From positions 1,302,001 through 1,366,000 of the forward strand of contig NC_089452.1 of the NCBI RefSeq assembly GCF_026210795.1: a stretch of DNA of 64,000 bases. The letters are read 5' to 3'. Made by a program: the position numbers and the translations under genes. Shown here piece after piece: positions 24,571 to 53,689 of the stretch (position 1 is its first letter; each line of letters starts with the position of its first letter). The stretch comes from Rhizophagus irregularis (taxonomy: Eukaryota > Glomeromycota > Glomeromycetes > Glomerales > Glomeraceae). The notes beneath the pieces were generated by a model. The model worked only from the letters and a program-made list of their open reading frames with translations, ran no database searches and was not told the origin of the DNA.

Positions 24571-26467
24571 TTATTGTTCACTATCTTGACTAATTTCATT
24601 TAGTTCTATAAAAAAAAAAAATAGATTAGATAAAGGAAATATTAGTAAAATTACAAATTAAATAATAACTTACCCAATTCACTTAATTGAACATCTAAGC
24701 ATTCTGAAACTGTATATTATGTATTCATAGTATTTAAATGTTAACAAATGTAAATGAAATAATTATAATAATAATAATTAAGAGAATACTTACTTGGATT
24801 TGCTAATGTTGATTGAGCAGTATAATTAGCATCTATTAAAAATTAAATAACATAAATAATGTAAAATGGATTATATGATAAAAACAAAATTAAATTTAAT
24901 TACCTGAGCTGAATTGAAAAGATGATGAAGAATTTACTGGTTTTGGAAGATTTTTAAAATTTAAAAGTCTACTAGTATAAATTGCTTGTGGATGCGTTTT
25001 GAAGCTTTTGGATTTATCTTCATTTGACCTGTTTTTGAATTTTTCTTTTCTAATTTTATCACATTCCTTTGTTTGAAGATAAATTTCACTATTTTGACTA
25101 TCTTCACTACCTTCAATATCTTCAATTTCATCATTCCATTTCTTTAATAGTTGGTACAATTCTTTAGTGGTTGGCCTATTTTTTATTTCAGCATTCCAAC
25201 ATTTTATCATTAAATCTGCAAGTAACTTTGGTACATCTTTAGAAATTGTTGGTCTAAGCCCTTTACATATTTTAATAGCCAAAAATTCATCATGAGGAAT
25301 ACCATTAAAAGGAATTTCTTCAGAAAGAAGTTCATTCATTATTATTCCAAATGAGTAAATATCTGCTGCTTTTGTATATTGTTGTCCACATAAAACTTCT
25401 GGTGCCATGTATGGTAATACTCCATGAATTCCTTCTTCTTTAATTGATTGCTTTAAATTTGCTGGTTGACACATACCTAAATCACTTATAAATGGATAAC
25501 CACTGACATTATATAATATATTACCTGAATGAAAATCTTTGTAAACTTTTTCAGCATTATGAATATCTAAAAGTCCTCTTGCAATTTGTAGTAAATGATA
25601 AATTTTTGAATTATAATTTATATAATTTTTAGATTTATTTAAATAATTTCTCAAATTTCCATCATCACAATAATATAAAACCATCATATACTCTTTATTA
25701 TTTGGATTTTGAGTAATTCCATAACATGGAACAATATCATCAATATAAATCTGAAGATGAGATTTAATCTAATTATCATCAAAAAGGAAAAATTTTATTA
25801 ATAAATAAATGCAAATAACAAACTTTATATATAAGACAAAGTAAGTTTAAATTACCTCATTTAAAAAATCTGAACATATATCAGAAGAATTATTCAAACT
25901 TTTCAATGCATATTTATCAATATTGTCTCTAAGCCAACTTTGATTTTCAATATCCCAATAGTAAATATTTCCTTCAGGCCATTTTGCTGAATAAATCTTA
26001 CCAAAACCACCTTCTGCAATATAAGTGATATTTTGAAATTTTTCAAAAGGTATCCATTCAAGAAATGTATCATAACTTACAGCATTAAGTTGTGATTGTT
26101 GTATAAATTCATCAATATTTTTATTTCCACTAGTCCAATTTTTAAAGTTATCCTTAAATCTTTTAGCATTACAAGATTGACACCAATCTACTCCTGTGCC
26201 AGGTTCTTTACATTTTCCACATATTCCAAATGCTTGTCTTCTTTCTTCTAAATCTTCGATATAAACTATTCTTTCATCTACATTTTCTGATTCAATAGTT
26301 GAATCAATAGTAGAAATTGTAACATATCTCTTTTAATAGACAAAAAAATTTTTAATATCTTTAACTACAAAAATTCAATAAATAATTATAATTATTAAAA
26401 AATATTAAATTACTATTACCTGATATTTATCATCATACTTCCATAAATTTTTTGGTTTTTCATCCAT
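24571..26467 (-). CDS. TKL-type protein kinase with N-terminal zinc motif, six exons, 498 aa
   Basis: Exons on the minus strand: 26420-26467, 25856-26329, 24904-25768, 24794-24832, 24674-24709, 24571-24605. All introns are GT..AG, and the last three are phase 1. Lengths sum to 499 codons including stop. Residues 53-69 form a CxxC..CxxC zinc motif. The kinase domain starts near residue 105 (EWIPFEKF). It has a glycine loop AEGGFGKIY (121-129), a lysine in YALKSL (K159), the catalytic loop YKDFHSGN (D252, N257), DLG in place of DFG (270-272) and the PYMAPEV activation-segment end. The usual HRD is YKD; aspartate is kept but H and R are not. The tail has TSRLLNFKNLPKP, a motif shared with the kinase at 51150. 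Substrate unknown. Activity is plausible but unusual. Confidence 0.9.
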
Positions 26468-43014: not shown

Positions 43015-44929
43015 TTAAATTTTAACTATACATTCCACCAAATCAGAATATTCTTGAACAAAGCTTTCACTAACATTCTTAGACTTTTCTATTTCTTTAG
43101 AAACATTGCGACTTGTGTAATATTCTTGCGAATGAGATTGTATAATAGAGATATTTGCTTGTTCTTGTACTAAAGCTTCATTTGCTTTTACAAATTCTAA
43201 CATATTATTTTTTAATTTTTTTAATTGATTATCAATATCAGGTACTCCATAGATATAATTTACATCCCTGTTTAATTCATAATATTTATTAACACATCTA
43301 ATCCAATCAGATATAATATTTTCAAGAATTGCTATGGTTGGTCTATTGGAAGGACTTGGATCCCAACATTTTTTCATTAAATCTATATAACATTTTGGAG
43401 TATTTTCAATAATTTTAGGACGTTTCCCTTCACAAACACTCAAAATAAGGTGATGATCATGTGCTTTACCTTTAAATGGAGTAATACCTGATGTAAATTC
43501 CCACATCATCATTGAAAAACTATAAATATCACTTTCTGGAGTATAGGGTTTATTTCTTAATATTTCAGGTGCCATATAAGGTAAAACTCCATAAATTTTA
43601 TCATCAGAATCTTGTAAATCACTTATAGGTTTACATAATCCTAAATCAATGATAAATAACTCATGATTATCTGACATTAAAATATTACCATCATGAAATC
43701 ACCATGAGTTAAATTTGATTCATGAATTACTTTAAGTCCCAATACAATTTTTTTCAATAATTGTAATCTGTCTTGCCATTTAAATTTAATTATATCAGAT
43801 AAACATTTTCTTAAACTTCCTTTTTTTGCATAACTCATCACTATTGCATAATTCAAATTATTTGGATTTTGGGTAAATCCAAAGAATTGAATAAATTTTG
43901 AAAATGATTTTTTCTGACAATTATAATGATACTTCCACTATATGAATAATAACAAAAGTATTAAATTTTTGCAAAAGAAATAAAATTTTTTATTAAATAT
44001 AAATACCATACCTCATCAAAAAATTTACTATTCAAACTTGATGAATTCTTAAATATTTTAAGAATAACCTCATAATCTGTTTGTCTATTCCATTGTTGTT
44101 TATCAGAATCCCAATTAAAAATAGGTCCATCTGACCAGATAGCTTTATGAATTTCACTAAATCCTCCTTCATCATAATAACTAATACTTGACAAATTATT
44201 ATAAGGTATCCATTCTAATATTTCATAACTATTTTTAGCATTCAGTTGTGCTTCTTGAATAAATTTATCAATAAATTCATTTTTACTAGTCCAATTTAAA
44301 AATTCTTGTTGAAATTGTTTAGAATTACATTGTGGGCACCACTGGTAATCAATATATGGTTGTTTGCATTTATTGCATTGATGGTGCCATGGGTACTCAA
44401 TATGTGGCTTTTTGCATTTATTACATACCTTAACTTCATCTTTAGAACTTAATTTAGTACATTCTGCTACTTTTTGATGCCAATAAAATGCTTTTTCTAA
44501 ATTTTTTTCCGTTCCTTCTCCATTTTCATAACATAAGGCTAAATTATTCATTGCTTCAACATGGTCTTTCTCTGCTGCTTTTTGATACCAATGAAAGGCT
44601 TTTTCTAAATTCTTTTCTGTTCCTACTCCATATCTATAACATCCGGATAAATTAAATATTGCTGCAACATGGTCTTTTTCTGCTGCTTTTTGATACCAAT
44701 GAAAGGCTTTTTCTAAATTTTTTTTTGTTCCTTCTCCATTTTCATAACATTTGGCTAAATTATACATTGCTTCTTTATCACCATTTTCTACTAATTGTTC
44801 CAAAGAATTAATGCATTCTTTACACCATAATTTTTCAGTAAAGGGTATATTGCAATAAGAACAATTTTTGGTGTTTGTTGTATTAGTATCTTTATCTAAT
44901 TCACTAAATTCAGTTGCCATATTGACCAA
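43015..44929 (-). pseudogene. Sel1-repeat protein kinase, frameshifted at the catalytic loop
   Basis: Exon 1 (44012-44929) gives 306 residues. It has a zinc-like CxxC pair (C23/C26, C36/C39) and three Sel1-type repeats at about 53-156 (A.YNLA.CYENGEGT..N..KAF.WY). Two or three more CxxC pairs lie at 169-201. The kinase start EWIPYNNL follows, then the glycine loop DEGGFSEI and lysine in VILKIF (K291). A 74-bp intron (43938-44011) leads to exon 2 (43015-43937). At the catalytic loop the reading HGDF changes frame near 43695: one base seems missing before DGNIL. The second frame then runs openly through DLGLCKP, VLPYMAPEIL and SPSNRPT to VECIVKI. Exon 2 has 923 bp, one short of a codon multiple, as a single deletion predicts. 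Either a recent null allele or an assembly error. Sel1 repeats normally mediate protein contacts. Confidence 0.85.
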
Positions 44930-45905
44930 AAAAATTTTTTTTTAATAATTCCTAATAAATAAACTACTAAAAAGGGATATTTTAATAAAAGTAGAAGTTG
45001 CAATAAAAAAAATATTTTTTCGGGCTATATTTTTTACGATACACTGATTGGATGATGTGGGAACGAATCGTATGTTAAAAGGTGATTTTATTGTTATGAT
45101 TAGTGGTTTGGGTGAAACTAGTTTGCCTAAGTGGTCTATAAAACGTTTCCAAATTTAGGTTTCTGGATAGCTAGTTTTGGTTTATATTTGGCGAAACTTT
45201 GGTGAAACGCTTAGATTTTCAAAGTCGAAACAATAATTATTAGTAAACACGTTGACCCAATCCAATGCAAAAATAGGTAACAAGAAATCGGCACTCAGGT
45301 ACTATCCAAAAAAAGGTAAGATCTACACATTATTTTGGTTCATTTACCACATACCCTTCTCATATTTTTTTTTTTGTTTTACTTTTTAGGTTAACATGTG
45401 ATTTGTATGTTTTTTTTTAGTTTAGCTTAGCGTAAAATTTAGTTAAACATAAATTTAGGTTAGTGGTTGATTTTTGTTAGCTAGTTTTTTTTAGATGGGA
45501 AATACGGTTTATTGTATTGATATAATTATCTCATGGTTACGATGTTATACAAATTGGTGATATTGCCTAAAAAGTAATTAGTCAAATATTGTATTGCATC
45601 ACTATTTAAAAATCAGTGTAACATTTAAAATTAGGTTCGCCAAAAATTTTTTAGGTAAAAATTTTTTTCTTTAGCGATGCTGCATACGTCTTTCTAATTT
45701 GATCAAAAAATATTTCCTTACTAGTAGAAATTGCATTTATCGTTCCTACATTAGAGGTCTGCGTTAACCACTATTGGACTATTATTATATCATTTTGTTG
45801 TAAAAACAAAAAATCGGCCAACTTAATTTTGGCCAGTTTAATTTCGGCCAGAATTAAGACGATTTTGACCAGAATTACGAAATCCGGGTTTAACGAAAAT
45901 CATGT
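44930..45905. other. Intergenic, no gene seen
   Basis: 5' flank of the Sel1-kinase, then AT-rich sequence. Repeated GGCCAGTTTAATTTCGGCCA motifs at 45820-45880 recall the interspersed repeat family at 59541 but could not be aligned convincingly. Confidence 0.45.
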
Positions 45906-51149: not shown

Positions 51150-53428
51150 ATGTCCAATATTCGGGAAGAATTAATACGAGCAGCGCTTAGTAGAGCAGAA
51201 TCATCAATTGATTATAATATTCACGTTGGCTTTCATAAACAATACGAATTTTGTGAACAATTCGTTCTTGCTGATAATTCTCTTACAGAAGAAGAAAAAA
51301 CTGAAGCAATAAGATTGATTAAAAGAGATCTTGACCGAGATAAAATTATTAATAATGATGGAACAAGAAGAGTTTGTGAAAATTGTAACCAAAAATGTTT
51401 AGCTACATTATATTGTGAATATTGTGTTCGAAATTATTTAAAATCTAATTTTTCAAATTGGACTTCTGGAAATAATGTTATTGATAATTTAATAAAAAAT
51501 TGTCAAATGGAAACACTTGCACCAAATGTTATTATTGAATGGATCCCATTTAATAATTTAGAAAATATTAAATATCTGACAAAAGGTGGATTCTCAGAGA
51601 TTTATACAGCAGATTGGATTGATGGATACTATATTGAATGGGATTCTAAAGAGCAACAATTAATAAGATCTGGAACTCTTGCTGTAATACTTAAAGAATT
51701 AAAAAATGTTGAAAATGCAAGTCAAAGTTGGTTTGAAGAGGTTTGTAAGTTAAAAATATTTAAAGAACTTAAATTTAAAATTTAATCGTTAATAATAATA
51801 TTTATTATTTTTTAAAGGCTAAATCACATTTAACTTTAGGCAACAAAGAATCAGCTATCGTTCAATGTTTTGGTTTAACACAAAATCCATCAAATAGAAA
51901 TTATTCACTTGTAATGATGGTGCTTGATATGAATTTAAGAGAATATTTACAACAAAATTATAATCAACTTACATGGAAAGAAAGAATTAGAATTACTTTT
52001 GAAATAATTGATAAACTTTATTGGATTCATGAAAAGAATTCAATTCATAGAGATTTGCATTCTGGAAATATATTATATTCACAGTTTAATGATTCTTGGT
52101 TTATTAGTGATCTTGGATTTTGTGGTCCTGCAGACAAACCATCAACAAGTATATATGGAAATCTTCCTTACATAGCTCCTGAAGTTATTAATGGAAAAGG
52201 GTATACTTATAAATCTGATATTTATAGTATTGCAATGCTTATGTGGGAAATTTCATTTGGGCAACCTCCATTTATGAATTATGAACATGATAGTATTCTT
52301 GCAATTAATATCATTGATGGTATAAGACCAAAAATTATATCAGAAATTCCTTCCGAATATAAAAGTCTAATGGAACAATGTTGGGATGCTAATCCATTAA
52401 AAAGGCCTGATATTAATACACTTTATAATAAGATGAATGAAATTATGTCATATTATCGAAATAATCCAAATGAATTACCTCAATTAATAGCGAAAATAGA
52501 TAAAGAAAAAATTAATAATATGAGTAGTAAATTATTTACAAGTAAGATTCACAATTTTGAAAATCTACCTGAACCTAAAAATGCGACAGAAGGTATGCTT
52601 TTTTAATGTTTATTAACTGTTTAATTTTTTTTCTTTAATATTATAATTAATGATACCCTTTTTTAATTAAATAATAATAGAAGAACAAAATGGTAATGTA
52701 AAGTTAATAATAATGTTTTAGTATAAATCCTTTAATTAATGAATAGATTGAAATAATCTTTTTTTTTAAAAAAAATAGCATTTTATATCACTAGATCATA
52801 TGATTTTAGTATTTCTGGTAATAGTAAGTATTTATTAAAATAATATTGAATTTTATATATTTTGTATAAATATAAATATCTTTTCATTATAGCTAGTAAT
52901 CATAGTAAATCAAGTAATCAGTATAAATCAATTAATTTTAAAGGTAATTTATTCTTAAATTAGAGTTTATAATAAACAAATACTAATAATTTATATCTTA
53001 ATTATAGATGATGATAGTAAAGAGTCATCCAGATTATTTAAAAAATTGAAAATGGAGAATGGTAAAGCCTTAAATATTTCATTCTAATTTTCATTGAATA
53101 TAAGATTGAATTTTTTATTAAATTTGATTTATTTAATAATAGCAGACATTCAAAATGACTATAAGAGAGAAATAATGCAGCAACGATCAAATATTAGTAT
53201 TGATGGTAAGTAAAATAAATTATTTATAATAATGATCAGTTATTATTTTTCTAATTTATCTTATTTTTATAGATGAAGTACAAAATAATCCAAATCTTCA
53301 TTCAGAAGAAAAAGATAAACAAGAAACTCCCGATGGTTTGTTTATAATTTAATATTTTAATAATATTAAAATGATATAATATATTTACTTATTTACTAAT
53401 ATATTTATTCTCTTTAGATGGATTTTAA
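51150..53428 (+). CDS. TKL-type protein kinase with zinc motif, nine exons, 552 aa
   Basis: Exons: 51150-51740, 51818-52592, 52681-52692, 52779-52817, 52893-52943, 53008-53061, 53143-53205, 53273-53335, 53418-53428. All introns are GT..AG. After the first (phase 0), seven successive introns are all phase 1. The sum is 553 codons including stop. N-terminal residues 1-70 are helical and charged. C76, C79, C89 and C92 form a zinc motif. The glycine loop is TKGGFSEIY (144-152), the lysine is in VILKEL (K182) and the catalytic loop is HRDLHSGN (D276, N281). DLG is at 295-297, then PYIAPEV. FTSKIHNFENLPEPK precedes a tail built from tiny exons (one is 12 bp). All key kinase residues are present, so activity is likely. 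The pathway is unknown. Confidence 0.92.
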
Positions 53429-53689
53429 ATTAATTTACTTGAAAGAAAACTCATTTTACTATTTATTATTTTATTTTGAAATTATTTAAACACTAAGATT
53501 AGAGTAGTAAAAAGATTCTTAGTTTGTAATTTAAATAATTCAATTCTTTATTTTTTATAGGACTTTTCAATTATTAAATAAAAATAATTATAAATTTATT
53601 ATAAAATATTATGTGTAAGCAAAGTAATTTTGTAATAACGCATTAGATTACGTCCAGTTCTCATCCTATAATCAATATCCAGTTTCAAT
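53429..53689. other. 3' flank of the kinase gene
   Basis: Short AT-rich spacer up to the duplicated block that begins near 53690. Confidence 0.5.

What the first reader, a model, noticed from the sequence alone, without database searches (positions are those of the whole stretch)
52593..53428. Kinase tails built from strings of tiny phase-1 exons
The 51150 gene ends with seven exons of 12, 39, 51, 54, 63, 63 and 11 bp, all joined at phase 1. The kinase at 24571 ends with three of 39, 36 and 35 bp, also phase 1. Each internal exon can be skipped or added without changing frame, so the tail looks like a modular, evolvable extension. One exon is only 12 bp.
Basis: partly seen in the sequence, partly recalled or inferred. 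Interest (0 to 1): 0.7.

Follow-up and report, generated by a model that had tools for sequence, protein, structure and literature searches.

The report
Kinase tails of phase-1 mini-exons
In a mycorrhizal fungus, hundreds of protein kinases end in a flexible tail encoded by a string of very small, same-phase exons; the string is real and conserved, but within each kinase subfamily it is passed on almost unchanged, and nothing here shows that its pieces are swapped or skipped.

Summary
The 51150 gene encodes a 554-residue kinase. Its last 99 codons come from seven tail exons of 12, 45 (not 39), 51, 54, 63, 63 and 11 nt, all joined at phase 1. The kinase at 24571 has three tail exons (39, 36, 35 nt), also phase 1. 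Introns in the kinase cores of both genes are phase 0.

The genome is almost certainly Rhizophagus irregularis DAOM197198. Thirty-six related copies share the seven-exon layout. Splice sites are conserved, stop codons are depleted in the predicted frame, and exon indels are mostly multiples of three (40/57 versus 216/786 in introns). dN/dS is about 0.6. The tail is therefore coding, frame-constrained and weakly residue-constrained. At least 509 places carry the pre-tail motif, and tails with one to seven exons occur.

'Modular, evolvable' is only partly right. Tail type follows the kinase tree exactly in my sample, exon number is nearly fixed within subfamilies, and differences mostly sit at the distal end. 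I found no sign of shuffling or duplication. Exon skipping is untested; fungi rarely skip exons. The architecture resembles schistosome micro-exon genes and aphid bicycle genes. Its place at the end of an expanded kinase family appears undescribed.

The parts
51150..51740 (+). Exon 1 of the kinase: N-terminal region and first part of the kinase domain; joins exon 2 at phase 0
   Evidence: same layout in most copies
51818..52592 (+). Exon 2: rest of the kinase domain plus the pre-tail motif NFENLPEPKNATE; ends at phase 1
   Evidence: (Pfam PF07714, E 2.5e-35); pre-tail motif at 509 places against 3 in the control
52681..52692 (+). Tail exon 1, 12 nt micro-exon (9 nt in three copies); tandem acceptor AATAGAAG
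   Evidence: GT conserved 100% and AG 91% across copies; tandem acceptor in 29 of 34; also present in sister subfamily A2
52779..52823 (+). Tail exon 2, 45 nt (reader gave 39), encodes AFYITRSYDFSISGN
   Evidence: donor GTAAGT/GTAGGT in 34 of 34 copies
52893..52943 (+). Tail exon 3, 51 nt; 30 to 72 nt in other copies, almost always in steps of three
53008..53061 (+). Tail exon 4, 54 nt, encodes DDSKESSRLFKKLKMEN
53143..53205 (+). Tail exon 5, 63 nt (60 with the alternative acceptor of TAGCAG)
53273..53335 (+). Tail exon 6, 63 nt, encodes DEVQNNPNLHSEEKDKQETPD
53418..53428 (+). Tail exon 7, 11 nt with stop, encodes DGF*
   Evidence: acceptor conserved 100%
24794..24832 (-). Second kinase, tail exon 1, 39 nt, phase 1
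   Evidence: 36 related copies
24674..24709 (-). Second kinase, tail exon 2, 36 nt, phase 1
24571..24605 (-). Second kinase, tail exon 3, 35 nt with stop
24904..25768 (-). Second kinase, exon 3 (kinase domain and pre-tail motif NFKNLPKPVNS); entered at phase 0, left at phase 1

Best explanation
The gene is a protein kinase of the expanded kinase repertoire of Rhizophagus irregularis. After the kinase domain and a conserved pre-tail motif (NLPEPKN) it carries a roughly 100-residue, charged, Ser/Asn-rich tail that is probably disordered, encoded by seven small exons with only phase-1 introns. Shown: the exons are coding, frame-constrained, weakly residue-constrained, and inherited with the kinase core. 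Shown by sampling: related subfamilies have tails of one to seven exons, differing mainly at the distal end. Inferred: the short introns (about 60-100 nt) are recognised across the intron, so every tail exon is normally included. The same-phase layout is an old feature that tolerates in-frame loss rather than an active exon-swapping device. The tail probably works as a flexible segment carrying short docking or regulatory motifs for the kinase; this last step is the weakest (about 0.4 on its own).
For: Conserved splice sites and stop depletion in 33 copies besides the window gene. Frame-preserving indels, P = 1.5e-10. dN/dS of the tail 0.64 (95% 0.44-0.90) against 0.65 for exon 1 and 0.49 for exon 2. 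Tail type follows the kinase tree with the minimum 6 changes for 7 types, as low in 0 of 200 shuffles. The motif and phase-1 junction recur: 509 pre-tail motifs (3 in the control), at least 116 A-type and 98 B/D/E-type exon|intron junctions with 0 in controls. Tail composition: 33-38% S/T/N/Q, 22-23% hydrophobic, no Cys or Trp in three members. Assembly identity: 32 scaffolds, scaffold N50 5,085,394 = length of contig C13, published size 146,773,001 bp (PMC10234402). That paper counts 2,533 members of the expanded kinase repertoire.
Against: No transcript was examined. Codon-position divergence in the tail is almost flat (0.157, 0.175, 0.174), so residue constraint is weak. dN/dS was computed by a simple counting method on members chosen as intact, in an AT-rich genome. 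Some copies with an intact kinase core have lost a tail splice site or frame (for example L003, L007, L011), so parts of the tail can be dispensed with. Docking function rests on composition and conserved short motifs only.
Confidence: 0.78

Rival explanations
1. The mini-exons are alternatively included (exon skipping or tandem-acceptor choice), giving many tail isoforms per gene, as proposed for schistosome micro-exon genes.
For: All internal tail exons are multiples of three in phase 1. Tandem acceptors are kept at tail exon 1 in 29 of 34 copies and at tail exon 5 in 19 of 34.
Against: Splice sites are conserved at all seven introns. Fungi show low exon skipping in a 65-species RNA-seq survey (PMC6142364). 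No whole internal exon was lost cleanly in 30-odd close copies.
Confidence: 0.15
2. The tail exons are exchangeable modules moved between kinases by exon shuffling or built by tandem exon duplication.
For: Uniform symmetric phase is the classic requirement for shuffling. Exon number varies between subfamilies.
Against: Tail type tracks the core tree perfectly in 27 kinases. No exon pair resembles another above shuffles on the family consensus, and only one marginal intron pair does.
Confidence: 0.06
3. The region after exon 2 is untranslated: the protein ends shortly after exon 2 (GMLF*), and the downstream conservation is regulatory.
For: A stop lies a few codons into intron 2. A conserved non-coding element does lie just after the tail.
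Against: Stops are depleted mainly in the predicted frame, indels keep frame, splice dinucleotides are conserved. Sequence after the exon 2 donor differs between copies.
Confidence: 0.04

Closest known systems
Micro-exon genes (MEGs) of schistosomes
   Same: Strings of short symmetric exons (6-36 nt in MEGs, PMC5825161) that can be removed without frame change.
   Different: In MEGs about 80% of the coding region is micro-exonic and the products are secreted or membrane-anchored. Here only the C-terminal tail of a kinase is, and no alternative splicing is shown.
Bicycle effector genes of aphids
   Same: Many small internal exons of one uniform phase in a rapidly evolving, expanded family. Genes with many exons of similar size and the same phase are described as rare in most genomes (PMC9168663).
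   Different: Phase 2 by that paper's convention, about 17 exons across the whole effector protein. Here phase 1, at most seven tail exons, and only the tail of an unrelated kinase.
SP7-like effectors of R. irregularis (PMC11333574)
   Same: Same fungus; modular hydrophilic proteins defined partly by gene structure.
   Different: Secreted repeat proteins; the kinase tails show no repeats between exons.
PF07714 protein kinases (R. irregularis expanded kinase repertoire)
   Same: The core domain belongs here.
   Different: The mini-exon tail lies outside the domain and has no Pfam match.

Membership tests
PF07714 protein kinase | Profile match over the kinase domain above the gathering score | tested here: met
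   122.5 bits against cut-off 23.1, residues 139-402
PF07714 protein kinase | Catalytic activity | not testable with these tools
   HRDLHSGN and DLG motifs are visible in the translation, activity unknown
Micro-exon gene (MEG) | Most of the coding region made of short symmetric exons | tested here: not met
   299 of 1665 coding nt lie in tail exons
Micro-exon gene (MEG) | Protein variants made by alternative splicing | not testable with these tools
   no transcript data
Bicycle gene | Uniform-phase small internal exons | tested here: met
   all seven tail introns phase 1; but the phase differs from bicycle genes and the core introns are phase 0
Bicycle gene | Member of the bicycle protein family (effector) | tested here: not met
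   kinase domain by Pfam; no secretion signal was tested
Exon-shuffled module array | Modules move between unrelated or distant cores | tested here: not met
   tail types each on one branch of the core tree

The most novel reading that the evidence does not exclude
An obligate plant symbiont uses a large kinase repertoire whose same-phase mini-exon tails act as a splice-tunable set of docking motifs, so that one gene family yields many kinase wirings by isoform choice or by small in-frame tail changes.
Probability: 0.1. Interest if true: 0.8.

Novelty: new variant of a known kind. Interest (0 to 1): 0.42.

Why it matters
Genes with many small exons of one phase are rare and mostly known from secreted, fast-evolving proteins. 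Finding the layout confined to the C-terminal tails of hundreds of signalling kinases in a mycorrhizal fungus gives a natural set of dozens of copies in which the origin and upkeep of same-phase micro-exons can be studied. It also warns that automatic annotation may miss 9-12 nt exons and truncate these kinases. If tails turn out to carry docking motifs, they would be a handle on what some 2,500 kinases do in this symbiosis.

Tried and rejected
Exon duplication within the tail: per-gene alignments gave inconsistent high scores, and the family consensus gave none. Introner-like origin of the tail introns: only one intron pair of 21 was marginal (P about 0.05). A codon-model omega from IQ-TREE was not printed by the program, so a counting method was used instead. 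My first splice-site predictor over-predicted (4.5 introns per shuffled sequence); the stricter version gave 0.6 against 2.4 for real loci. A first kinase tree was discarded because rows were cut at the wrong motif. Paper searches for a description of these tails found none.

Full report
WHAT WAS CLAIMED.

WHERE THE WINDOW LIES. The held genome has 146,748,485 bases in 32 contigs, and the window is C24:1302001-1366000. The published Rhizophagus irregularis DAOM197198 assembly has 32 scaffolds, 146,773,001 bp and scaffold N50 5,085,394 (PMC10234402); contig C13 here is exactly 5,085,394 bp. I take this as the same assembly. That paper counts 2,533 members of an expanded kinase repertoire.

THE GENE. 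Joining 51150-51740, 51818-52592, 52681-52692, 52779-52823, 52893-52943, 53008-53061, 53143-53205, 53273-53335 and 53418-53428 gives an open frame of 1665 nt and 554 residues. Pfam PF07714 matches residues 139-402. Intron 1 is phase 0 and the seven tail introns are phase 1. The second kinase has two phase-0 core introns and three phase-1 tail introns.

IS THE TAIL CODING? A DNA search with the tail found 45 matches; 36 copies with enough sequence, the window gene included, were aligned, and two broken ones (L014, L015) were set aside for most counts. True splice dinucleotides are conserved in 67-100% of copies, other GT/AG in the introns at a median near 50% (P = 8e-6). In the predicted frame 1.2% of tail codons are stops, against 3.2% and 25% in the other frames and 11% in introns. 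Gap runs in tail exons are multiples of three in 40 of 57 cases, against 216 of 786 in introns (P = 1.5e-10); this count used all 34 usable copies, not only intact ones. In 21 intact genes dN/dS is 0.64 (bootstrap 0.44-0.90) for the tail, 0.65 for exon 1 and 0.49 for exon 2. Divergence at the three codon positions of the tail is nearly flat, so residues are weakly constrained while frame is strongly constrained, as expected of a disordered segment. The tail has 33-38% S/T/N/Q and 22-23% hydrophobic residues in the three members measured.

THE 12-NT EXON. Its sequence (AAGAACAAAAAG in the consensus) and both splice sites recur in nearly all copies, and in the sister subfamily A2. Three copies use a 9-nt version. 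A tandem acceptor is present in 29 of 34 copies. Because the exon is frame-neutral, inclusion cannot be proved without transcripts.

HOW WIDESPREAD. The pre-tail motif (NLPEPKN in degenerate form) occurs 509 times, against 3 for the reversed control. Of 40 further loci taken from two contigs, 35 of 36 with a predicted intron begin the tail at phase 1, and 79 of 96 predicted tail introns are phase 1, against 53 of 121 in shuffled sequence. The splice model used for this was trained on family A, but only on intron positions and codon use, not on phase. Specific junction patterns occur at least 116 times (A-type) and 98 times (tail following YS), with none in controls. The single-locus predictions are rough; family A, family C and A2 were checked by alignment.

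HOW IT EVOLVES. Family A (window gene) keeps seven tail exons. Family C (24571) keeps three across 36 copies, some with a frameshift in the second tail exon (for example L079) or a GC donor (for example L109). A2 has five, B two, and others one or two. Twenty more A-type loci include full seven-exon tails (L135, L141, L142), tails cut short (L138, L139), one that has lost the last exon (L149), and one (L144) in which the end of tail exon 4 and the following intron are gone in frame. A tree of 27 kinase cores puts each tail type on one branch: six changes for seven types, the minimum possible, and as low in 0 of 200 shuffles. So tails descend with their kinases and change mainly at the distal end. 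No similarity among tail exons was found on the family consensus, and only a marginal one between two introns.

MECHANISM. Shown: coding, frame-constrained, same-phase, vertically inherited. Inferred: introns of about 60-100 nt are recognised across the intron, so the mini-exons are normally all included; fungi show low exon skipping (PMC6142364). Inferred and weakest: the tail carries short docking or regulatory motifs, for example the basic stretch SRLFKKLKMEN and the conserved end NPNLHSE...DDGF.

COMPARISON. The layout resembles schistosome micro-exon genes (PMC5825161) and aphid bicycle genes (PMC9168663), which are built of small symmetric or same-phase exons, but those are largely secreted proteins with small exons through most of the coding region. 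A tail-only version on an expanded kinase family appears undescribed in the papers searched. That search was limited to open-licence papers.

LIMITS. No RNA or protein evidence, no other species, dN/dS by a counting method, a tree from one exon, and loci sampled mainly from a few contigs.

Noticed in passing
window 53477-53541 and 3' flanks of family A and A2 loci (for example L001 2392, L055 780, L134 957): A conserved inverted-repeat element, GAATTATTTAAACACTAAGA...TCTTAGTTTGTAATTTAAATAATTC, lies about 50 nt or more after the stop codon; an exact-pattern search finds 267 copies genome-wide, 0 in the control. It folds into a hairpin in single sequences, and an inner hairpin shows paired changes (GTAAAAT.ATTTTAC, GTAAGAT..TCTTAC), but the alignment-wide fold energy is weak. 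No Rfam match. Structured 3' RNA element or foldback transposon remnant.
   Followed up: partly
L031 (G000:C1:647800-653700): A unit of about 1015 bp containing the last tail exons of a family A kinase is repeated in tandem four times (96-99% identical), giving spare tail ends next to one gene.
   Followed up: partly
L019, L026, L030, L032 tail introns: Insertions of about 90-290 bp enlarge single tail introns while the exons stay in frame.
   Followed up: no
L079, L081, L083, L084, L097: A one-base insertion in the 36-nt tail exon of family C gives an early end in most of these copies (SECLDC.I..*), so the distal tail is lost or changed.
   Followed up: no
L064 and L073: A similar stretch (MATVGHGRSSVGHDRSRTFDRPTDRL when read as protein) interrupts the tail region of two different kinases, probably a repeat insertion.
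   Followed up: no
window 43015-44941: A third kinase in the window, with Sel1-like repeat sequence upstream, shows no convincing mini-exon tail by the predictor.
   Followed up: partly
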